64,000 bases of DNA from Brucella cytisi. GTDB lineage: Bacteria; Pseudomonadota; Alphaproteobacteria; Rhizobiales; Rhizobiaceae. Shown here one piece after another: positions 36,494-64,000 of the stretch. The position numbers and the translations under genes were made by a program. The stretch covers positions 1,178,001 to 1,242,000 of the forward strand of contig JAAVLQ010000003.1 in NCBI GenBank assembly GCA_012103075.1, given 5' to 3'. The notes beneath the pieces were generated by a model. The model ran no database searches. It saw only the letters and a list, made by a program, of their open reading frames with translations, and had not been told where the DNA came from. Every line of letters begins with the position of its first letter. Position 1 is the stretch's first letter.

Positions 36494-37303
36494 GGAACTG
36501 TTGCAAACTTTCCGTCAATGATCGGGTGTATGATCTGGTTTTCAAGCGAGCCGGGATTATGTGATGTTCAAGGGCCGTCATTTCGATAAGTCAGTAATCT
36601 TACTTTGTGTGCGATGGTACCTTTCCTACAATCTGAGCTTGCGCAATTTGAAGGAAATTATGGCTGAACGCGGTATCGATCTCGACCATTCAACAGTCCA
36701 CCGTTGGACGCAGTATTTCAGTCCGATATTGCTTGAGCGCTTCAACCGCAAGAAACGCCAAGTCACTCGAAAATGGAACGTCGATGAAACCTATGTTCGC
36801 GTCAAAGGCCAATGGATGTATTTCTACCGTGCCATTGATAGTAATGGTGATACGGTTGAGTTCTGGTTTAGTGAAGAGCGTGACTTAAGGGCTGCCAAAC
36901 GCTTTATGCGCAAGGCTTTAGCACGCGATGGTAGCCCGAACCGCATCACGATTGATGGCAGTCAGACAAACCGAACAGCAATCATCCAGTGTGACGCCGA
37001 AGATCGACTAAAGCGAGATGGAAACCCGATTGCTATTCAATCCTCCAAGTACATGAATAACCACATTGAACAGGATCACCGGCGTATCAAGCGCCGGATA
37101 AGATCCATGCTAGGGTTCAAATGCACAACCTCAGCCAACACCACTTTGGCTGGTATCGAACTCATTCACATGATGAGAAAGCAGCAGGGCTTCTTCGCCG
37201 CAGCGACACCGCTTTCACTCAAACAACAGTTCACAGCCCTCGCAGCATAATTGCGTCTGCAGCGGGGCATGCTCCGTGATGAACGAATTTTTGCAACGGA
37301 ACC
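36494..37303 (+). mobile_element. complete IS6-family insertion sequence (810 bp)
   Basis: Ends GGAACTGTTGCAAA (36494-36507) and the complement of GGTTCCGTTGCAAA (37290-37303) are imperfect 14-bp inverted repeats of IS26-like type. The size of 810 bp is normal for the family. The 8-bp flanks (AAAATACT and ATTGTTAT) differ, so there is no target duplication; insertion by cointegration or later recombination is likely. Confidence 0.88.
36564..37250 (+). CDS. IS6-family transposase
   Basis: Intact DDE transposase, 228 residues from ATG 36564 (GTG 36561 possible). It begins FKGRHFDKSVILLCVRWYLS. The helix-turn-helix is SLRNLKEIMAERGIDLDHST. Catalytic Asp in WNVDETYVRVKG, second Asp in ITIDGSQTN and Glu in NNHIEQDHRRIKRR are present. 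It is probably active. Confidence 0.93.
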   Translation: MFKGRHFDKSVILLCVRWYLSYNLSLRNLKEIMAERGIDLDHSTVHRWTQYFSPILLERFNRKKRQVTRKWNVDETYVRVKGQWMYFYRAIDSNGDTVEFWFSEERDLRAAKRFMRKALARDGSPNRITIDGSQTNRTAIIQCDAEDRLKRDGNPIAIQSSKYMNNHIEQDHRRIKRRIRSMLGFKCTTSANTTLAGIELIHMMRKQQGFFAAATPLSLKQQFTALAA

Positions 37304-50678: not shown

Positions 50679-51498
50679 GGTTATGTCGCAAATTTTTCAT
50701 CAGGTTAAAAGCGGCCTGATCTTCAGACGTAATTATGCTGCAAGCTCCGCAAAGACCTCGAATGGCGAGCGGTTGTCATTTGCGAACTGCTTCTTGCGGA
50801 TCATATGTGCTACTTCGATGCCCGCGATTGTCGCTGAGGCCGAATGAAATGCCTTGAAGCTCAACATGTGTTTGGTAATTCGCTTGATAAACCGGTGATC
50901 CTGCTCAAGGATGTTGTTGAGATATTTAACCTGCAGGATTTCAATCATCTTGCTGTGACCGGTGATTTTCAGGATTGTGTTTACAGCTTGTGCTCCGGCC
51001 AGATTGGCTCCGCTTTTATCAATGACAATTTTGTCTGGAACACCGTTGGCTGCGATGGCTTTCTTGAAGAAACGCCGTGCAGCACCGAGATTTCGGCGTT
51101 CGGCGAGCCTGAAATCAAGCGTTTGTCCGTCACGGTCAACGGCCCGGTACAGATACGTCCATTGTCCTTTGACCTTTAAATAGGTCTCGTCAACACGCCA
51201 AGACGCAAGCGTTCGACGTCTACGCTTCTGTGCCTGATCTGCGATCTGTGGCGCGTAACGGACAACCCAACGGTTCAATGTTGCATGGTCAACGTTCACA
51301 CCACGTTCGGCCATAATTTCCTGCAGGTCACGATAGGAACCGGGATAGCGCACGTAAAAGAAAAAAACGGCGTAAAGGATGACACTTTTTAGGAAAATGA
51401 GCCCCTTTGAAATCGATTGCCATACCCTGTCACCTCACTCAATTATTCGCTCCGAAGGGACAGTAGCGCAGCAGAAGTGAAAATTTCGCGACAGAACC
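50679..51498 (-). mobile_element. complete IS6-family insertion sequence (820 bp)
   Basis: Ends GGTTATGTCGCAAATTTTTC (50679-50698) and the complement of GGTTCTGTCGCGAAATTTTC (51479-51498) match at 17 of 20 positions. The 8-bp flanks (TTGCATCA, GCCAGTAG) differ, so no target duplication. This is a different subgroup from the copy at 36494. Confidence 0.85.
50733..51423 (-). pseudogene. IS6-family transposase, frameshifted at the 5' end
   Basis: From ATG 51423 the protein begins AIDFKGAHFPK, but two homopolymer changes (AAAAAG near 51391 and the T-run near 51360) break the first 30 residues. The rest is intact: SYRDLQEIMAERGVNVDHAT, Asp in SWRVDETYLKVKGQWTYLYR, Asp in KIVIDKSGANLAG, Glu in LNNILEQDHRFIKR. 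It may be active if the breaks are read errors. Confidence 0.85.
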
Positions 51499-52686: not shown

Positions 52687-55600
52687 ATGTTCAGGAGAAA
52701 GCATTCTTATCTATTTCTTTCTACCGCGACGATAGCTTTGCTGGCTACAGTAATGGCCGGGGCGAAGGCCGTACAGGCGGAGGTTTAGGAGGTTTCGGGG
52801 GCTCGCTCGGCGGTGCCGGAACTTCGGCAGGTAGATCTGAAGGTGGTGTCGGTAGGTCTGCTGGTTCATCGCTGGGCGGTGGGTTTGGTGGAAATCTCGG
52901 GGGTGCCGGGAGATCTGGCGGTAAATCTGAAGGTGGTGTCGGTAGGTCTGCTGGCTCATCGCTGGGCGGTGGGTTCGGTGGGTCCCTCGGGGGGAGGCAG
53001 TGCAGGTTCATCTGTTGGCGGCGCAGGAAATCCGGTGGAGCTGCAGCCGGAGGTGCAGGTAATGGCGGAGGTAAATCGGCGGGTGGTGCGGGGAAATCCG
53101 GTGGAGCGGCAGCCGGAGGTGCAAGTAATGGCGGGGTAAATCGGGGAGATCAGGCGGCAAATCTGAAGGTGGTGTCGGCAGATCGGCCGGCTCATCGTTG
53201 GGTGGTGGCTTCGGTGGATCCCTTGGCGGTGCGGGCAGATCTGGTGGTAAATCGACGGGTGGAGCAGGCAAGTCGGCGGGGAAATCTACAGGTGGCGTGG
53301 GTCGCTCCGTCGGTTCGGCGATTGGTGGCGTTGGTAAGTCAGCCGGGAAATCGGCTGGTGGAGCAGGCAAGTCGGCCGGGAAATCTGCAGGTGGCGTGGG
53401 TCGCTCCGTCGGTTCGGCAATTGGCGGCGTTGGTAAGTCAGCCGGGAAATCGGCTGGTGGAACAGGCAAGTCGACGGGCAAATCTGTAGGTGGTGTGGGT
53501 CGCTCCGTCGGTTCGGCGATTGGTGGCGTTGGTAAATCAGCTGGTAAATCAGCTGGGAAATCGGCTGGTGGAGCAGGCAAGTCGGCCGGGAAATCTGCAG
53601 GTGGCGTGGGTCGCTCCGTCGGTTCGGCAATTGGCGGTGTTGTCGGCGGCCTTGACGGTGCACTCGGTGGTGCACTGGGCGGCGGCGCAGGTGGCATCGG
53701 AGGTATCGGCGGCTCACTTGGCGGTGCTGTCGGTGGTGTTGCTGGCGGTCTTGACGGTGCGCTCGGTGGTGCACTGGGCGGCGGCGCAGGTGGCGTCGGA
53801 GGTATCGGCGGCTCGCTTGGCGGTGCAGTCGGTGGTGTTGTTGGCGGCCTTGATGGTGCGCTCGGTGGTGCACTGGGCGGCGGCGCAGGTGGCGTCGGAG
53901 GTATCGGCGGCTCGCTTGGCGGTGCAGTCGGTGGTGTTGTTGGCGGCCTTGACGGTGCGCTCGGTGGTGCACTGGGCGGCGGCGCAGGTGGCGTCGGAGG
54001 TATCGGCGGTTCACTTGGCGGTGCAGTCGGTGGTGTTGCTGGCGGTCTTGACGGTGCACTCGGTGGTGCACTGGGCGGCGGCGCAGGTGGCGTCGGAGGT
54101 ATCGGCGGCTCGCTTGGCGGTGCTGTCGGTGGTGTTGCTGGCGGTCTTGACGGTGCACTCGGTGGTGCACTGGGCGGCGGCGCAGGTGGCGTCGGAGGTA
54201 TCGGCGGTTCACTTGGCGGTGCTGTCGGTGGTGTTGCTGGCGGTCTTGACGGTGCACTCGGTGGTGCACTGGGCGGCGGCGCAGGTGGCGTCGGAGGTAT
54301 CGGCGGCTCGCTTGGCGGTGCTGTCGGTGGTGTTGTTGGCGGCCTTGATGGTGCGCTCGGTGGTGCACTGGGCGGCGGCGCAGGTGGCGTCGGAGGTATC
54401 GGCGGCTCGCTTGGCGGTGCTGTCGGTGGTGTTGCTGGCGGCCTTGACGGTGCACTCGGTGGTGCACTGGGCGGCGGCGCAGGTGGCGTCGGAGGTATCG
54501 GCGGCTCACTTGGCGGTGCTGTCGGTGGTGTTGTTGGCGGCCTTGATGGTGCGCTCGGTGGTGCACTGGGCGGCGGCGCAGGTGGCGTCGGAGGTATCGG
54601 CGGCTCACTTGGCGGTGCTGTCGGTGGTGTTGTTGGCGGCCTTGACGGTGCACTCGGTGGCGCACTGGGCGGCGGCGCAGGTGGCATCGGAGGTATCGGC
54701 GGCTCGTTTGGCGGCACGATCGGTGGCGTTGTCGGATCGTTGGATGGCGTTCTGGGCGGCACCGGAGAAGACGGTGGCTGGGCGGTTCGCTCGGCGGCAC
54801 GATCGGTGGCGTTGTCGGTGGTTTGACGGCGTTCTGGGCGGTACCGGTGAAGACGGCGGCCCGGGTGGTTCGCTTGGCGGCACGATTGGCGGCGTTGTCG
54901 GATCGCTGGATGGCGTTCTGGGTGGTGCCGGTGAAGATGGTGGCCTCGGCGGTATCGGCGGCACGATCGGTGGCGTTGTCGGATCGCTGGATGGCGTTCT
55001 GGGTGGTACCGGAGAAGACGGCGGTCTTGGCGGCACGATCGGTGGCGTTGTCGGATCGCTGGATGGCGTTCTGGGTGGTACCGGAGAAGACGGCGGTCTT
55101 GGCGGCACGATCGGTGGCGTTGTCGGTGGTTTGATGGCGTTCTGGGTGGTACCGGAGAAGACGGCGGTCTTGGCGGCACGATCGGTGGCGTTGTCGGTGG
55201 TTTGATGGCGTTCTGGGCGGCACCGGTGAAGACGGTGGCCTCGGCGGTATCGGCGGCACGATCGGTGGCGTTGTCGGATCGTTGGATGGCGTTCTGGGTG
55301 GTACCGGAGAAGACGGCGGTCTTGGCGGTTCGCTCGGTGGCACGATCGGTGGCGTTGTCGGTGGTCTGGACGGCGTTCTGGGCAGCACCGGTGAAGACGG
55401 CGGTCTTGGCGGTTCGCTCGGCGGCACGATTGGCGGCGTTGTCGGATCGCTGGATGGCGTTCTGGGTGGTGCCGGTGAAGATGGTGGCCTCGGCGGTATC
55501 GGCGGCACGATCGGTGGCGTTGTCGGATCGTTGGATGGCGTTCTGGGTGGTACCGGAGAAGACGGCGGTCTTGGCGGTTCGCTCGGTGGCACGATCGGTG

Positions 55601-58600
55601 GCGTTGTCGGTGGTTTGGACGGCGTTCTGGGTGGTGCCGGTGAAGACGGTGGCCTCGGCGGTTCACTCGGTGGCACGATTGGCGGCGTTGTCGGATCGCT
55701 GGATGGCGTTCTGGGTGGTACCGGAGAAGACGGCGGTCTTGGCGGCACGATCGGTGGCGTTGTCGGTGGTTTGATGGCGTTCTGGGCGGCACCGGTGAAG
55801 ACGGTGGCCTCGGCGGTATCGGCGGCACGATCGGTGGCGTTGTCGGATCGTTGGATGGCGTTCTGGGTGGTACCGGAGAAGACGGCGGTCTTGGCGGTTC
55901 GCTCGGTGGCACGATCGGTGGCGTTGTCGGTGGTCTGGACGGCGTTCTGGGCAGCACCGGTGAAGACGGCGGTCTTGGCGGTTCGCTCGGCGGCACGATT
56001 GGCGGCGTTGTCGGATCGCTGGATGGCGTTCTGGGTGGTGCCGGTGAAGATGGTGGCCTCGGCGGTATCGGCGGCACGATCGGTGGCGTTGTCGGTGGTC
56101 TGGACGGCGTTCTGGGTGGTGCCGGTGAAGACGGTGGCCTTGGTGGTTCGCTCGGTGGCACGATTGGCGGCGTTGTCGGATCGCTGGATGGCGTTCTGGG
56201 TGGTGCCGGTGAAGACGGTGGCCTTGGTGGTTCGCTCGGTGGCACGATTGGCGGCGTTGTCGGATCGCTGGATGGCGTTCTGGGTGGTGCCGGTGAAGAT
56301 GGTGGCCTCGGCGGTTCGCTTGGCGGCACGATTGGCGGCGTTGTCGGATCGCTGGACGGCGTTCTGGGTGGTGCCGAAGAAGACGGCGGTCTTGGCGGTT
56401 CGCTTGGCGGCACGATCGGTGGCGTTGTCGGTGGTTTGGACGGCGTTCTGGGTGGTGCCGGTGAAGACGGTGGCCTCGGCGGTTCACTCGGTGGCACGAT
56501 TGGCGGCGTTGTCGGATCGCTGGATGGCGTTCTGGGCGGTACCGGAGAAGATGGTGGCCTTGGTGGTTCGCTCGGTGGCACGATTGGCGGCGTTGTCGGA
56601 TCGCTGGATGGTGTTCTGGGCGGTACCGGCGAAGACGGTGGCCTCGGCGGTATCGGTGGCGTTGTCGGTGGTTTGGACGGTGTTCTGGGTGGCACCGGAG
56701 AAGACGGTGGTCTTGGCGGTTCGCTTGGCGGCACGATCGGCGGCGTCGTCGGGTCGCTGGATGGTGTTCTGGGTGGTACCGGAGAAGACGGTGGCCTCGG
56801 CGGTATCGGTGGCACGATTGGCGGCGTTGTCGATGGCCTCGGCGGCACCGTCGGTGGAGTGGTTAGTGGTGTCACTAACTCACTAGACGGTGCGTTGAGT
56901 GGGCTATTTGGCGGCGGCAATACCGGTGGCGGTAACACTGGCGGCGGCAATACCGGTGGCGGCGATACTGGCGGTGGCAATACTGGTGGCGGCAACACTG
57001 GCGGTGGCAATACTGGCGGCGGCAATACCGGTGGTGGCAATACTGGCGGCGGCAATACCGGTGGCGGCAACACTGGCGGTGGCAATACTGGTGGCGGCAA
57101 CACTGGCGGTGGCAATACTGGCGGCGGCAATACCGGTGGCGGTAACACTGGCGGCGGCAATACTGGCGGCGGCGATACTGGCGGTGGCAATGCCGGGGGA
57201 TTGATACGGGCGGAGGGATCATCGTCGGAGATATTATCAATCCAAGCATGATGGACGATATGAACTGCGGCAGTGCACTTGATTGCGTAAGTCCGTCCAT
57301 TGGCTTGGTAACAACGGCAAATCGTGAGCCGAACAAGGTGTTCGTTAATGATGCAGGATCTCCTGTCAAGCCGAAAAGTGAGGCCGCTTACTCTCTTGCA
57401 GGTGCTGACGGTGGTGTAAGCCCGATAAGCTTGCTCGCTTTTGCCTCCGATAGTCGAAGCGAGGGCGCAAACGATTCACTTCCTAATGAGATTGATGCCA
57501 ACTCGAGCGGTCGCAACCGTTTGACGAGTGGTAACCGTTCAAATGGAGTTGGAAGCATTCCGGGCGTAGGTAGAGACATTACGAGCATCGAAATCCGGGA
57601 CGAAACCTCAAATCCGGAATTTGAGGGGAGTGTAACCGATGCAACAGATAAGGCACGTGAAGCTGGTATTGAAAACTTGCTTGCTTACTTGTCCCGCAAC
57701 AGTCGATCTGGCTTCCGCGATCAATCTACTGACACCGGTAATGCAAGTGCGCCCCTATCGTCTCTCGGGCTTGAACCAGCCATCGCTCAAGAGGCTAGCC
57801 CCAACCGCATGCCCGGTCTAAATGGCGCTAATTCAAGTAATAATTCTACTCCGGGTCTCGAAACGACAACGAGTGAAGCTGTTGTAGATCCGACTGATGC
57901 TCACAACGAAGGTAAGAAAGGCAGTCAATCCCCATCTGCGAGCACAACTGGGGAAAATAATGCTGTTGAAGCATCTGGCAGTGGTTTTGAAGAGCTGCTT
58001 GCCTATTTGTCAGATAGCAACGGATCCAAGACGTCCAACTCAATCGTTAACGCTCCGAACGAAACGAACGCAGCCACACCCGGTGAGTTAATCTCCGTTG
58101 AAGGTGCCGCAAATAATGATTGCGCAACAGTCCAATTGACAAAACTGCGCACGAAACACCGGCGGGCTTTCCCGGTAGCAAAAATGTAGATGAGAATCAC
58201 GATCGCACGACAGAACCTGCCGGCAATATTGCTGCAACCGATGACGGGTTTCAGGTTGAGACCCAGATGGTCCCAATCCCCAGTGACCGTCCTACGAATT
58301 CTGCGAGCGGCGCAAGTGGAAGTGAAACCGGAGGAATCCGGTCCGGATTCAAAAATTGCTCGCGAATTTATTCGGTGCTGATGCCGAGAGCGGCGACGAC
58401 CGGCGTGCGGCTTCGAATGAAAGTGCAGGCACGCGCCCACGGGCAAGGCCCCGGAACCAGCCCACTTGCCAACGACCGGCTTGCAGCTTCGAATGAAAGT
58501 GCAGGCACGGATCGCCCACGGGCGGGGCTCCCGGAACCAGCTCACTTGCCAACGACCGGCTTGCAGCGTCGAACGAAAGCGCCGGCATGGGAGCGCCAAC

Positions 58601-59946
58601 CAAAATGGCTCCCGAAACGGAATGCTTGCCAATGAATCGATTGCAGGAGCGAGCGATGGTCAGCAAGCGAGGGATAAAAGCTTATCCGCCAATGATGGTA
58701 GCTCCGGGCAACAACTAGCTTTTGCAGCTGACAGTATTCCGCGCGACCGGAGTACGGGTTTGGCAGGGAACCGCAACGAAGCATTGGGAGGTTCGATTGC
58801 TGCTTTCTGTAGCACCGTCGGAAATTCGCTCGCGAATACAAACAACGTGAATTCGTCGACAGATCTGCTCGCGTACAATGCAGGAGGTCAACGTTCGGCT
58901 CCCAATGTCTCCGTAGGTGTAGCCGTGCCTTCAATCGAGATGAAGGATCTTGAAAAGATCAAGGTGACACGTCTTGTTTATGACGTCCCGAAGTCTGAAG
59001 TCGATGAGCAAGTCGAACATGTGGCAGAAGCTACGCGTGCATATAAGTCCAAGAAGGGCAAAGCGTCTATTGGCGATCGCATCACGGTCAATCTGAATGG
59101 CAAGATCAGCGAGGTGGTGCCAGCTGGTGTCGGGTCAGAACGGACTCTTGTACTTGGTGAAAACGAGCTCATACCGGGCTTTGAGGAACAGTTAGTCGGA
59201 GCTAAAGCCGGCGACGAGAAAATGATTACTGTCGAATTTCCAACGACCTTTCGATATTCAGGTCTGGCTGGAAAAGAGGCATCTTTCAACGTTACGATTA
59301 AGGAAGTCGCTTCACGGGGAAAACTGTCGGTGAATGATGAAACTGCGAGGAAAATCGGTGTTAAATCATTAGCTGACTTGCGCAACGGCGTACGGGCCCG
59401 GATTGAGAATCAATATGGTGCGGTTGCGCAGCACAGGATGAAGGAACAATTGCTTGAACAGCTTGTGGCGTCTTATCAGTTCACCGCTCCTCCTCAGATG
59501 GTGGAGACCGAGTTCAACAATATCTGGACCGGGATTAATCGAAATCTTAAAACGAAAGGCACCACATTCACTGAACTTGGCACCACAGAAGAAAAAGTTC
59601 GGAATGAAACCAGACTTCTCGCGGAGCGTCGAATCCGTAGCGGACTAATCCCGGTCGCGATCGGTCAACAAGCAGGTATTACTGTTACGAAAGAAGATCT
59701 GAAACGGCGCTTGCAAGAGCAGATAAGTGCCCTTCCAACGGGCAAACGGCAAAACATTATTAATTTCTATTCTTCAAATCCGCGAGCTGTGAGCGCGTTG
59801 AAATCTCGGCTTTATGAGGAGAAAGTGGTCAACTATTTGCTGGGAAGAATCTCAATTACCGATAAAAAAGCGGGCAAGGAAGAGTTTTTGGCAATCAATG
59901 GGATAAACAAGTCCACTTCCAGGCAGGTGCCAGAGAAAAAAACTGA
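52687..59946 (+). CDS. giant exported glycine-rich repeat protein with C-terminal trigger-factor-like domain (frameshifted)
   Basis: About 2,420 codons from ATG 52687, which has GGAG eight bases upstream. Order of parts: signal peptide FRRKHSYLFLSTATIALLAT, then VMAGAKAVQA; a Gly/Lys/Ser-rich array; eleven 33-residue Gly repeats; some twenty-five 25-29-residue repeats with GEDGG; a GGGNT array; a Ser/Asn-rich linker with recurring LLAYL motifs; and a final domain matching trigger factor from its PPIase domain onward. Reading-frame changes occur near 52770, 52995, 53030, 53140, 54775, 54826, 55131, 55203, 55771, 57203, 58135, 58360, 58440 and 58610. At each, the same repeat sense continues in a new frame, so one ancestral ORF is clear. 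Uncorrected, the last frame runs to 60073 through the terminator; a one-base A-run correction gives TGA 59944-59946. The role is not known; an exported surface or matrix protein is an inference. Confidence 0.75.
52775..53640 (+). repeat. Gly/Lys/Ser-rich repeat array
   Basis: Units of the kind GGVGRSAGSSLGGGFGG, GGAGKSAGKSAGG and GGVGRSVGSAIGGVGKSAGK follow each other. Lys and Arg make this the only basic part of the repeat region. Frame breaks are frequent in the first 400 bases. Confidence 0.8.
53641..54710 (+). repeat. eleven 99-bp tandem repeats (33-residue Gly-rich unit)
   Basis: Unit GGLDGALGGALGGGAGG followed by VGGIGGSLGGAVGGVV. Successive copies of CTTGACGGTGC or its variant start at 53651, 53750 and 53849, an exact 99-base period. 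Copies differ mainly at GVVGG versus GVAGG and in synonymous positions. No frame break occurs across the array. Confidence 0.9.
54711..56876 (+). repeat. tandem repeats of 75-87 bp (GTIGGVVGSLDGVLGG-GEDGG unit)
   Basis: Unit GTIGGVVGSLDGVLGGTGED followed by GGLGGSLGG (29 residues), GGLGGIGG (28) or GGLGG (25). Asp and Glu make this array acidic. A block of about 395 bp (55132-55526) recurs exactly at 55701-56095. Five one-base losses, all in the same direction, fall between 54775 and 55771. Confidence 0.88.
56905..57197 (+). repeat. 15-bp repeats coding GGGNT pentapeptides
   Basis: About nineteen copies of a 15-base unit (GGCGGCAATACCGGT and variants) encode (GGGNT)n with occasional GGGDT. 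This follows the acidic array after a short bridge (VTNSLDGALSGLFGGG). Confidence 0.9.
58398..58640 (+). repeat. three degenerate repeats of about 78-81 bp in the linker
   Basis: Starting with GACCGGC at 58398, 58474 and 58554, each encodes, in changing frames, DRLAASNESAGT followed by PTGGAPGTSSLAN. The uneven spacing (76 and 80) reflects indels inside the copies. Confidence 0.75.
58915..59946 (+). other. trigger-factor-like PPIase and chaperone domain region of the giant protein
   Basis: In one frame: VAVPSIEMKDLEKIKVTRLV marks the start of homology. The FKBP-type domain follows (GDRITVNLNGKISEVVPAGV, LVLGENELIPGFEEQLVGAK, GLAGKEASFNVTIKEV). Then comes the helical SurA-like domain (LADLRNGVRARIENQYGAVA, FTAPPQMVETEFNNIWTGIN, FYSSNPRAVSALKSRLYEEK, VVNYLLGRISITDKKAGKEE). 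The GFRxGxxP ribosome-binding domain that starts normal trigger factor is absent; repeats stand in its place. The alignment is from memory of alphaproteobacterial trigger factors. Confidence 0.85.
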
Positions 59947-59973: not shown

Positions 59974-59999
59974 AAAAGGCCGCCGAAAGGCGGCCTTTT
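59974..59999 (+). terminator. strong rho-independent terminator
   Basis: AAAAGGCCGCC, loop GAAA, GGCGGCCTTTT: a perfect 11-bp stem ending in T, 27 bases after the corrected stop. It supports the plus strand as coding strand and the early stop. Confidence 0.9.
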
Positions 60000-60966: not shown

Positions 60967-61933
60967 ATGGTTAGTGTACTAGACTTCGAAATGGGGCCGA
61001 AGAAGGGCGTTGCGGGGGATATGACCAAGGGAACTACGGATGTTCGCAAGTTCCCGCTGGATGAAACACATTGCTTTGATCAACTGGAAACGTGCCGGAT
61101 CCTTCAATCAAGCGCCAACCTTGATTGGCCGCAAGTTTATGTATCAAAACAGATAGAAGATCCCAACGAAGGCACGTTCCCCGGCAGTCCCCATCTTTTC
61201 ATCAGTCTGACACGGTCAGGGCCGGCTAGAGTATTTTTCGACATCAAGGCACAAAGGTCCTATGTGAGGTTGCATCCCGGTCAGATGAACATCCCCGGCG
61301 CCAGATGAGCCTGCACGTGTCAGGTGGGAACGCAGGGTGCACACAACCCATCTTTATCTGCGGATTCACTTTTGGCGGAAGTTGCTGCTGATTTTTCCAG
61401 TAAAAGTCCCAAACCCATAGAGATCATTAGCAAGCTGGCGTTCGTCGACACTTTGCTCGAAGGATTGGTCAACGCAATTTGTGATGCCACAGACTGGGAC
61501 ATGGAGGGTCTTTACGTGGATCATCTGGCCCGGGCTACAGCCTGCCATTTGATCCGGAAATACTCGGATCTGAGCTTCCGGCCAATCGGCAAGGAAATTG
61601 CCGGGCAGCTGACGCATACCAGATGGCTAATTTTCGCGACGCGATAGAGGCCGAGATGAGCAAGAAGCTGACATTGGCCGACCCGCCGAGGGAAGTGGAC
61701 TCTCTACCAGCCATTTTGCTCATTTGTTCAAGCAGACAACCGGTAGAACACCGTATCAGTATCTCTTGCACAGCCGCATCGGGCGTGCGCGTTATTTGCT
61801 GACAAAGTCAACATTGCCCCTTGGGCAGATCGCTGCCGAGTGTGGCTTTGCCGATCAAGTCCACTTCACCGTGGTGTTCTCGAAGATAGTTGGCCAGCCT
61901 CCCGCGTCATATCGCAAACTGGCAACCCAATAA
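60967..61933 (+). CDS. AraC-family transcriptional regulator (frameshifted)
   Basis: About 320 residues. The N-terminal part (DETHCFDQLETCRILQSSAN) is a sensor-like domain of unknown ligand. The C-terminal DNA-binding domain reads FAHLFKQTTGRTPYQYLLHS RIGRARYLLTKSTLPLGQIA, then AAECGFADQVHFTVVFSKIV GQPPASYRK, the classic double helix-turn-helix. Breaks near 61310, 61365, 61615 and 61690. ATG 60967 is chosen, but no strong ribosome-binding site precedes it. It may control the secretion genes downstream. Confidence 0.78.
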
Positions 61934-62532
61934 TCGCCAGCCACTGGGAGAATGATTACACCGGATCCGTGGTTTGGTCAACGACGAACCAGAAGCCCAA
62001 TCAATCTGTGTTACCGATTGGGTTTCGAGCGGTCTGTCACTGGTTGGTGGGTTCATCGCGAGGTCCAGTTGATGCAATCATATGTCATCGAACTGTTGTC
62101 CCTGCCAACCCTCGCAAATACTGAAACGGCTCTTCTGGCCGATCAGGCCCGAAAGTATGCTTCACCTCGATCTTGGTGTTGATGCTTGCGCTCTGGGAAT
62201 CTCGGCTGTTCGCTATCGAAACAATCCACGGCGGAAAGCAATTCGCAATTGGGATAATGGACCGGCATTTCTCAATGAGAGGCGTGAGCCGGGGCTGTGA
62301 ACCGAGCTTGGTTGCCTCGCCCTCGCTGGCGTTGAAACCCGTTTCAATAAAGATTACCCTCCATTTCCACGCTTTTTGGGCGGCTAAAGAACTTTGGTCC
62401 GACTATGCCGGCAAGCTTGATTGATGAATTCCTCGAATGCTTGACGCATGTCGTGAAAGCGGGCCCAGTTTCTTGACTTAAATAATAAATGTGGGACCCT
62501 GTTTATGCTAAAAGCAAATATAGGAGGTTCCC
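61934..62532. other. unassigned stretch before the secretion genes
   Basis: Short plus-strand frames (FERSVTGWWVHREVQLMQSY; IETIHGGKQFAIGIMDRHFS) suggest a decayed gene of about 150 residues, but no family is recognised and no good start is seen. Confidence 0.3.
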
Positions 62533-63007
62533 ATGCTTGAGCTTCTATTTGGGGGTGGCGACACAGAGACAACAGCGGTTGTGTCCGATTCTTCTGGATT
62601 ACGATCGGTCGGGTGAAGTCACGTTCGATGATGCTTACGTCAATTTCATGGAAGGTGGCGGGCATCTTGACTGGGTGCTGCGATGCTGGTCGGCAGCGCC
62701 CGGACAGGTATTGCACTCACCCATCACTGATCCCGATCTCTTCAACCAGATGATGGTGTGCATATCGCCTGAATTCGTGCAGGCGGATAAGGTTTCGCCT
62801 GAACGTATAGGTGAGGAGAATCTGAATATTCCCGAATGGCAAAAAGCCGCTGCGGGCAAGAAAGCGCTCGCGGCGGCCCATGATTTCATTGGTGTTTCAC
62901 TGACCCTGCGTGGTCAACCAGTAGCCCGGTTCGTCCAGATGTCTGTCGTCGTCCACGACATAGCAAGGCTTGAACGTCTCGGGAACGAAGGATGCGATAG
63001 TTGTTAG
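62533..63007 (+). CDS. unknown protein upstream of a type I secretion ATPase (one frameshift)
   Basis: ATG 62533 follows an excellent ribosome-binding site (GGAGG, five-base spacing). It reads LELLFGGGDTETTAVVSDSS, then after a break near 62610 GEVTFDDAYVNFMEGGGHLD, RCWSAAPGQVLHSPITDPDL, ERIGEENLNIPEWQKAAAGK and QPVARFVQMSVVVHDIARLE, ending with two Cys (CDSC). About 157 residues, no signal peptide, no recognised family. It is 12 bases from the exporter start, so it is probably in the same operon and may be a secreted substrate or accessory protein. Confidence 0.6.
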
Positions 63008-63019
63008 GGAGCCTTTCGT

Positions 63020-64000
63020 ATGTCATTGGCTGACGCCACCGCGTTGTTCCGCCCGACAAAGAAGCGTGCAGAAAATGAAATCAGCGCGGCGATAAGATCG
63101 CTTCGACCATATCTCATTGTCGTGGGTATTTTCTCAAGTGTTATCAATCTTTTATATCTTAGTTCCCCATTATATCTGATGCAGGTTTATAACCGGGTTC
63201 TCATCAGTGAAAGCATTCCGACTCTTGTCCTTTTGACGCTTGTCTTGGTACTCGCGTTGCTTGTCATGGCAATATTGATGCAGTCCGGGCCCAGATGCTG
63301 GTCAGATGTGGTGTGTTGCTTGATGAGAAACTGGCAAGTCGGGTATTTGCAGCACTTGTCCAGAAATCTTCCGCGCAGGGCTATTCCCCGGCGCTCTTCC
63401 TTTACGGAACTTGATGATTTCAGAACATTCGTGACTGGCCCGGGTATCCATTTCGCATTTGATGTGCCCCCGATTCCGATTTACCTCGGGCCCTTTACTT
63501 TGTTCACCCGGTTCTGGGTTTGGTCGCAACGACGGAGCGCTGATCCTGCTGGTGCTCGCATTTGTCAATGAAGCGGTTACACGCGAGCCGATGGACGATG
63601 CCCGTGCTGCGGCCGCGGTCTTTCGTTTTACTGAAAAATATCATGCAGCACGCGGACGTTATCCGGGCCATGGGCATGCAGTCGGCAGTTGAACGCCACT
63701 GGCAAGGAAGCCGGGCGGGAATGCTGATCAGGCAAGCTTTTGCCAGTGATCGAAATGCAGTCATTTCGGCGAGCATACGTTTTACGCGACTTCTGCTCCA
63801 GTCGCTCATACTTGGCACCGGCGCATGGCTGGCGATCGATCACAGTATCTCGCCTGCAACTATATTCGCGGCGAGCATTATCATGGGGCGCACACTTGTA
63901 CCGGTGGAGCAAGCCGTTTCAGCATGGAAACAAGCAGCTGGTGCCCGCAACGGTTATAGGCGGATCCGCGACCTCTTGAACGAGATTCCTCCAAATGAGG
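63020..64000 (+). CDS. type I secretion system permease/ATPase, PrtD/PrsD type (partial, frameshifted)
   Basis: Membrane domain of an HlyB-like exporter without the N-terminal peptidase domain. SLRPYLIVVGIFSSVINLLY then LSSPLYLMQVYNRVLISESI is the typical PrtD start. FTELDDFRTFVTGPGIHFAF, ADVIRAMGMQSAVERHWQGS, RFTRLLLQSLILGTGAWLAI and FAASIIMGRTLVPVEQAVSA follow. Breaks near 63280, 63390, 63505 and 63625. The ATPase domain lies beyond the window end. ATG 63020 follows GGGAGCCTTTCGT. Confidence 0.85.

What the first reader, a model, noticed from the sequence alone, without database searches (positions are those of the whole stretch)
52687..59946. Giant exported glycine-rich repeat protein ending in a half trigger factor
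The sequence shows a signal peptide, about 4.4 kb of four distinct Gly-rich repeat types, a Ser/Asn-rich linker and then a domain matching trigger factor from the PPIase domain onward. Trigger factor is a cytosolic ribosome-bound chaperone; its catalytic and substrate-holding parts on an exported repeat protein would be a new architecture. One possible reading is that the C-terminal domain acts as a built-in proline isomerase or holdase for the repeats outside the cytoplasm.
Basis: partly seen in the sequence, partly recalled or inferred. Interest (0 to 1): 0.92.

Follow-up and report, generated by a model that had tools for sequence, protein, structure and literature searches.

The report
Exported giant protein with half trigger-factor
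A few bacteria of one order carry a very long, glycine-rich, apparently exported protein whose tail is two thirds of a chaperone that normally sits on the ribosome inside the cell; the fusion is real, arose once, and in most known carriers comes with its own secretion genes.

Summary
The window shows a signal peptide (52687), about 4.4 kb of Gly-rich repeats, a linker and a C-terminal half trigger factor (FKBP plus Trigger_C, hardly any Trigger_N). Two relatives prove it: open frames of 3,190 and 3,211 codons (G221, G565) with the same order of parts. Seven genomes carry the exported half; its TF domains form one clade (100/100) beside Mesorhizobium trigger factors: one fusion, then probable lateral transfer. 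A specific PrtD-type ABC and an unnamed ~440-aa protein accompany it in five of seven carriers and none of ten chosen non-carriers. The half is under purifying selection (dN/dS 0.16-0.25, five pairs). The built-in isomerase idea fits poorly: four repeat stretches hold 1 Pro in 4,023 residues, and two FKBP-pocket phenylalanines, present in all 29 canonical rows, are lost in five of seven exported copies. Aromatic-poor linkers repeat an LLAY(L) motif (24 LA[YF], about 0.4 expected). Best reading: a tethered holdase that binds these stickers and controls solubility or assembly of an exported matrix protein. The mechanism is inferred.

The parts
52687..52785 (+). N-terminal signal peptide (MFRRKHSYLFLSTATIALLATVMAGAKAVQA-), like the N-termini of the G221, G173, G271, G511 and G565 proteins
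   Evidence: by reading only
52794..53248 (+). Gly/Ser repeat type 1, frame-broken; 90-bp units found at 52794-52993, the rest assigned by reading
53249..53642 (+). Gly/Lys/Ser repeat type 2, 99-bp units
53636..54732 (+). Gly/hydrophobic (GGxx) repeat type 3, 33-aa units, 55% Gly, no Pro
54733..56837 (+). Gly repeat type 4 (..GEDGGLGGSLGGTIGGVVG..), about 28-aa units, frame-broken; arrays found from 55101, the start assigned by reading
56909..57191 (+). GGGNT pentapeptide array
57192..58930 (+). Ser/Asn-rich linker, in open pieces 57248-58189 and 58466-58930, with LLAY/LLAF/LAF motifs at about 57431, 57668, 57986, 58715 and 58856
58916..59946 (+). C-terminal half trigger factor (FKBP-like about 59057-59299, Trigger_C about 59366-59842), lacking the ribosome-binding domain
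59974..59999 (+). GC-rich hairpin with a T run, inside the nominal ORF end (60073), so the natural end probably lies before it
   Evidence: read directly; not listed by the consensus scan
60967..61960 (+). AraC-family regulator, frame-broken in the window (end approximate)
   Evidence: by reading; the G221 homologue confirmed by Pfam, those in L103, L104, L105 by reading
63020..64000 (+). start of a PrtD-type type I secretion ABC gene; HlyD adaptor and ~440-aa protein follow beyond the window

Best explanation
A giant matrix- or fibre-type protein with an N-terminal signal peptide carries, as its C-terminal domain, the FKBP and arm domains of a duplicated Mesorhizobium-type trigger factor. Shown: architecture in single frames in two genomes, one clade for the TF part, purifying selection on it, linkage to a T1SS module in five of seven carriers, loss of part of the isomerase pocket in those five. 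Inferred: outside the cytoplasm the half-TF acts as a tethered holdase. Its hydrophobic cradle binds the recurrent LLAY(L) stickers of the neighbouring linker (in cis at first, perhaps in trans later), keeps the chain soluble during export and controls when it assembles, much as the terminal domain of a silk protein does (analogy recalled). The T1SS probably exports the ~440-aa partner, while the giant uses its N-terminal signal.
Against: No binding, localisation or expression data; the export route was not tested. Two of five AlphaFold models were poor (pLDDT 57 and 49). Carriers G565 and G477 lack the closely related ABC and the 440-aa protein and keep F177/F194, so neither is essential to the architecture. 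The linker is only weakly constrained (dN/dS 0.67 and 0.55). Only 24 of 49 linker aromatics lie in LA[YF], 5 of 12 in the window pieces; G565's two motifs stay within the shuffle maximum of 3. Sec export runs N to C, so the TF half emerges last and cannot shield the repeats early.
Confidence: 0.5

Rival explanations
1. Tethered SurA-like general foldase: the half-TF serves other envelope proteins, including the 440-aa partner, with the repeats as a scaffold.
For: Fold of TF chaperone domains; the SurA chaperone module is structurally homologous to that of TF (PMC2956729, passages); F198, Y221 and F233 mostly kept.
Against: F177/F194 lost in five of seven copies; rare, accessory distribution.
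Confidence: 0.15
2. Retention plug: the folded C-terminal domain stalls or anchors the giant chain at the envelope, and chaperone activity is irrelevant.
For: Folded C-terminal end on a low-complexity chain; T1SS genes adjacent.
Against: Constraint on the TF half and recurrent LLAY motifs beside it.
Confidence: 0.13
3. Active prolyl isomerase for its own chain.
For: FKBP_C hit; the G221 linker has 119 Pro in the 1,291 residues counted; F198, F233 kept in 7 of 7 and Y221 in 6 of 7.
Against: 1 Pro in 4,023 repeat residues; two pocket residues lost in five of seven; flap loop pLDDT under 50 in the window model.
Confidence: 0.1
4. Assembly artefact or decaying fusion without function.
For: Window copy frame-broken and assembly noisy; the G477 copy is also broken; G221's genome is estimated 9% contaminated.
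Against: Two single-frame homologues, that of G565 in a one-contig genome; dN/dS well under 1.
Confidence: 0.03

Closest known systems
Trigger factor (TIGR00115; Pfam Trigger_N, FKBP_C, Trigger_C)
   Same: FKBP and C-terminal arm domains; the window half is 45-49% identical to same-genus TFs and 50-53% to g19 TFs; NCBIfam scores the window and G221 halves above the 'trigger factor' cut-off
   Different: No ribosome-binding domain, a signal peptide, C-terminal on a ~3,200-residue repeat protein, FKBP flap degenerate in five of seven copies; an extra gene beside the canonical tig in the own genome and in g19 carriers
SurA and PpiD periplasmic chaperones
   Same: Chaperone module related to the TF arms (PMC2956729, passages); envelope location
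   Different: They carry parvulin domains (recalled) and are not repeat fusions; no parvulin match here
Chloroplast Tig2 (PMC11731035, abstract and outline)
   Same: A truncated TF with a new task
   Different: [quoted passage not shown] this keeps the other two
Rhizobial PrsDE-type T1SS and its substrates (PMC2275737, passages)
   Same: PrtD-type ABC (TIGR01842) and HlyD (TIGR01843) next to large secreted-protein genes
   Different: The giant has an N-terminal signal peptide and no RTX match
Spidroins (recalled)
   Same: Gly-rich repetitive body, signal peptide, folded C-terminal control domain
   Different: No homology claimed; that domain is not a chaperone relative

Membership tests
Trigger factor | N-terminal ribosome-binding domain (Trigger_N) | tested here: not met
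   Only about the last 32 of 144 positions match, below cut-off, in the window and in G221
Trigger factor | FKBP-like domain plus Trigger_C arms | tested here: met
Trigger factor | Intact PPIase pocket | tested here: inconclusive
   F177 and F194 lost in 5 of 7, F198 and F233 kept in 7 of 7, Y221 in 6 of 7; activity not measured
Trigger factor | Cytosolic, ribosome-bound | not testable with these tools
   Signal peptide and missing Trigger_N argue against it
SurA/PpiD | Parvulin (rotamase) domain | tested here: not met
   No such match in the Pfam scans at E 1 (TF part of the window) and 0.1 (whole G221 protein)
RTX-type T1SS substrate | RTX nonapeptide repeats | tested here: not met
   Whole G221 protein: only three TF-related Pfam families at E 0.1
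PrtD-type T1SS (neighbouring genes) | ABC and HlyD subunits above curated cut-offs | tested here: met
   TIGR01842 620 bits (cut-off 510), TIGR01843 346 bits (cut-off 209) for the G221 proteins; the window's own copies were compared by search only

The most novel reading that the evidence does not exclude
A laterally spread secretion module builds a self-assembling extracellular material in which each giant chain carries both the glue and its own regulator: LLAYL stickers in the linker and a half trigger factor that first masks them in cis and then binds them in trans, so that a ribosome chaperone has become a cross-linker and assembly switch outside the cell.
Probability: 0.2. Interest if true: 0.93.

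Novelty: new variant of a known kind. Interest (0 to 1): 0.8.

Why it matters
Trigger factor is known as a cytosolic, ribosome-bound chaperone. Here two thirds of it has been fused, apparently once, to a giant protein with a signal peptide, kept under purifying selection, and is found in two families of one order, mostly with a dedicated secretion module. It would be a natural counterpart of the artificial trigger-factor solubility tag, a test of whether a chaperone can work in cis outside the cell, and a warning that automatic annotation may label such proteins 'trigger factor' (the half alone passes the NCBIfam equivalog cut-off).

Tried and rejected
Paralogue idea: a second locus at C3:12 kb (pieces at 58-88% protein identity, with stops) is best read as the other end of a circular contig with assembly errors; rejected.

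Artefact of assembly: rejected because of G221 and G565. Chance open frames: the GC-rich repeats also give long minus-strand ORFs, so length alone was not used; signal peptide, TF half and dN/dS were.

Plasmid origin: in the plasmid collection the half-TF has no relative of 60% identity or more (41 records, best 48%, annotated as trigger factor where annotated in the 20 rows listed), and the 440-aa protein no match.

Literature: seven searches showed no exported or repeat-fused trigger factor in their listings; one search listed 25 of 46 papers; only open-licence PMC papers are covered.

Organism name: not established. The genus of f50/g57 is unnamed too. Tat export: the twin arginine near the N-terminus of several copies was not tested; G565 has Lys-Arg. 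Structure of the repeats: not obtained.

G237 showed two weak TF matches; not followed up.
Full report
1. Observation. The signal-peptide start lies at 52687. Repeat arrays run to 57191. The linker follows, in two open pieces (57248-58189, 58466-58930) in the same frame as the TF half, with another frame open between them. The C-terminal half matches Trigger_C and FKBP_C strongly and only positions 112-143 of 144 of Trigger_N, below cut-off. The window frame is broken several times. The own genome (5.87 Mb, 3 contigs) is estimated 85.8% complete and 6.4% contaminated. The start of contig C3 repeats window 47.8-64.0 kb at 96.9% identity with 370 gap positions, and the two copies differ by many small indels; a further short piece joins with about 1.9 kb missing between. 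The simplest reading is an untrimmed circular overlap in an uncorrected assembly.

2. Is the fusion real? In 397 genomes of the order (E 1e-20, at most 5 candidates scored per genome), besides the own genome G221, G173, G271 and G237 showed two matches; G237's are weak and were not followed. In the genus of G271 (146 genomes, E 1e-112, so a copy as divergent as the window's would be missed) G271, G511, G565 and G477 showed two. G271 contig C55 (45,878 bases) has the length and match position of NZ_JAKREW010000036.1, Mesorhizobium sp. IRAMC:0171, so g19 is taken as Mesorhizobium. G221 holds one frame of 3,190 codons from the start Met (3,199 stop to stop) and G565 one of 3,211: signal peptide, Gly-rich repeats, linker, half-TF, with 0 stops in frame and 58 to 87 in each other frame. 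G565's genome is one contig, 100% complete and 1% contaminated; G221's has two contigs, 99% and 9%. G173, G271 and G511 have C-terminal pieces that run off one contig and N-terminal pieces that run off another; that each pair is one gene is inferred. G477 has a broken copy. Counting the window, seven carriers: two intact, three at contig ends, two frame-broken.

3. Rarity. Among 394 genomes of the family (E 1e-130) only G271 had two matches, and the own genome's match was its exported copy; G511, G565 and G477 do not appear among the matching genomes and were probably not drawn. The match list of that call is cut, and genomes without a match are listed only in part. The genus of G221: 2 of 5. 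The 23 other same-genus genomes each show one match, at 45-49% identity, taken as the canonical TF. The window's linker piece is absent from 34 of 34 other same-genus genomes (one weak hit, 6.6e-4, in another family).

4. Origin. A maximum-likelihood tree of 36 rows (34 different; 7 exported, 29 taken as canonical, of which two are second fetches of the same gene) puts the seven exported halves in one clade, 100/100, in 100% of 200 bootstrap trees. That clade lies in an 18-row branch (100/100) with the g19 and g23 TFs, not with the seven TFs of the window's genus; its place inside g19 has 90/88 only. Dropped before the tree: L009, whose row lacks the pattern I cut at, and the own canonical TF, which is frame-broken. 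The window row has a long branch (0.9). The join with the linker falls at the same place in the six aligned copies. So: one fusion from a Mesorhizobium-type TF; presence in f50/g57 and in one genome of the window's genus is best explained by lateral transfer (inferred). Order within the clade: G565, then G477, then the rest. The PrtD-type ABC proteins of G271 and G221 are 90% identical.

5. Module. G221: AraC (reverse) - ABC - HlyD - ~440-aa protein - giant. G271, G511 and G173 show, by reading, AraC, ABC, HlyD, the ~440-aa protein and then the giant's N-terminus at the contig end. The window has the giant first, then AraC and ABC; HlyD and the 440-aa protein follow beyond its end. Only the ABC and the 440-aa protein were searched in other genomes. 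Among 17 genomes (7 carriers, 10 non-carriers chosen by me) the 440-aa protein is in 5 carriers and 0 of 10 others. The closely related ABC is in the same five (89-98% to G221 in three; 57-68% in pieces in the own noisy copy); elsewhere there are only more distant T1SS ABCs, up to 43%. The 440-aa protein occurs in 2 of 146 genomes of g19 and 2 of 5 of g57, all four carriers. It has no Pfam or NCBIfam match and a strongly conserved C-terminus in four copies, so it is the likelier T1SS cargo (inferred).

7. Repeats and linker. Four repeat stretches (two window pieces, G221, G565; 4,023 residues) are 41-55% Gly with Gly enriched at lags 3, 4 and 7, and hold 1 Pro in all. Larger segments of G221 and G565 counted hold 24 and 2 Pro; the G221 segment reaches into the linker. 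The linkers are rich in Gly, Ala, Asn and Ser, and the motif LA[YF], mostly LLAYL, recurs: G221 7, G565 2, G173 3, G271 3, G511 4, window pieces 3 and 2, in all 24, against summed shuffle means of about 0.44; 24 of the 49 aromatics of these stretches lie in it. For G565, G173, G271 and the window pieces the shuffled stretch was everything before the TF half in that piece. Three N-terminal pieces scanned in the same call have none. In G565 the count does not exceed the shuffle maximum. Cys sites recur after the pentapeptide array (a pair in G221, G511, G565 and the window piece) and before the TF half, which would suit export.

8. Mechanism. TF-client contacts are predominantly hydrophobic and mostly involve aromatic residues (PMC8573040, passages). 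A half-TF without ribosome-binding domain, next to a linker in which about half of the aromatics sit in repeated LLAY motifs, suggests a tethered holdase acting on those motifs. The repeats offer almost no proline for an isomerase. If export is by Sec it runs from the N-terminus, so the half-TF would come out last and could act on the linker rather than on the repeats. A switch from cis to trans binding would give assembly; that is the bold reading.

9. Verdict. Architecture: confident (about 0.95). Single origin: well supported. Functional link to the module: likely for the five derived copies. Mechanism: open (0.5).

Noticed in passing
window 50733-51353 (-) and 36561-37250 (+): IS6/IS240-type transposase genes (the first confirmed by Pfam; the second by reading); one lies about 1.3 kb upstream of the giant gene.
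   Followed up: no
start of contig C3 versus window 45-64 kb: Probable untrimmed circular overlap of a noisy assembly (96.9% identity, 370 gap positions); apparent duplicates in this genome need care.
   Followed up: partly
L055:4424-5734; L103:6077-7276; L104:1652-2836; L105:1674-3101: A 395-476-aa protein family without Pfam or NCBIfam match (G221 copy) and with a strongly conserved C-terminus (ALQITEGVA..TPILTFVGQP); in the genomes searched, found only in module carriers.
   Followed up: partly
L055:15116-16165: NCBIfam equivalog TIGR00115 scores the exported half 269 bits against a cut-off of 180, so automatic annotation may call these giant proteins trigger factor.
   Followed up: no
window 62489-63007: Small ORF with an EF-hand-like stretch (DYDRSGEVTFDDA) between AraC and the ABC gene; homology untested.
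   Followed up: no
window 43-50.6 kb: Frame-broken sugar ABC transporter genes with a kinase-like gene, near matches in Sinorhizobium medicae plasmids.
   Followed up: no
G237: Two weak trigger-factor matches in one genome, perhaps a split gene.
   Followed up: no
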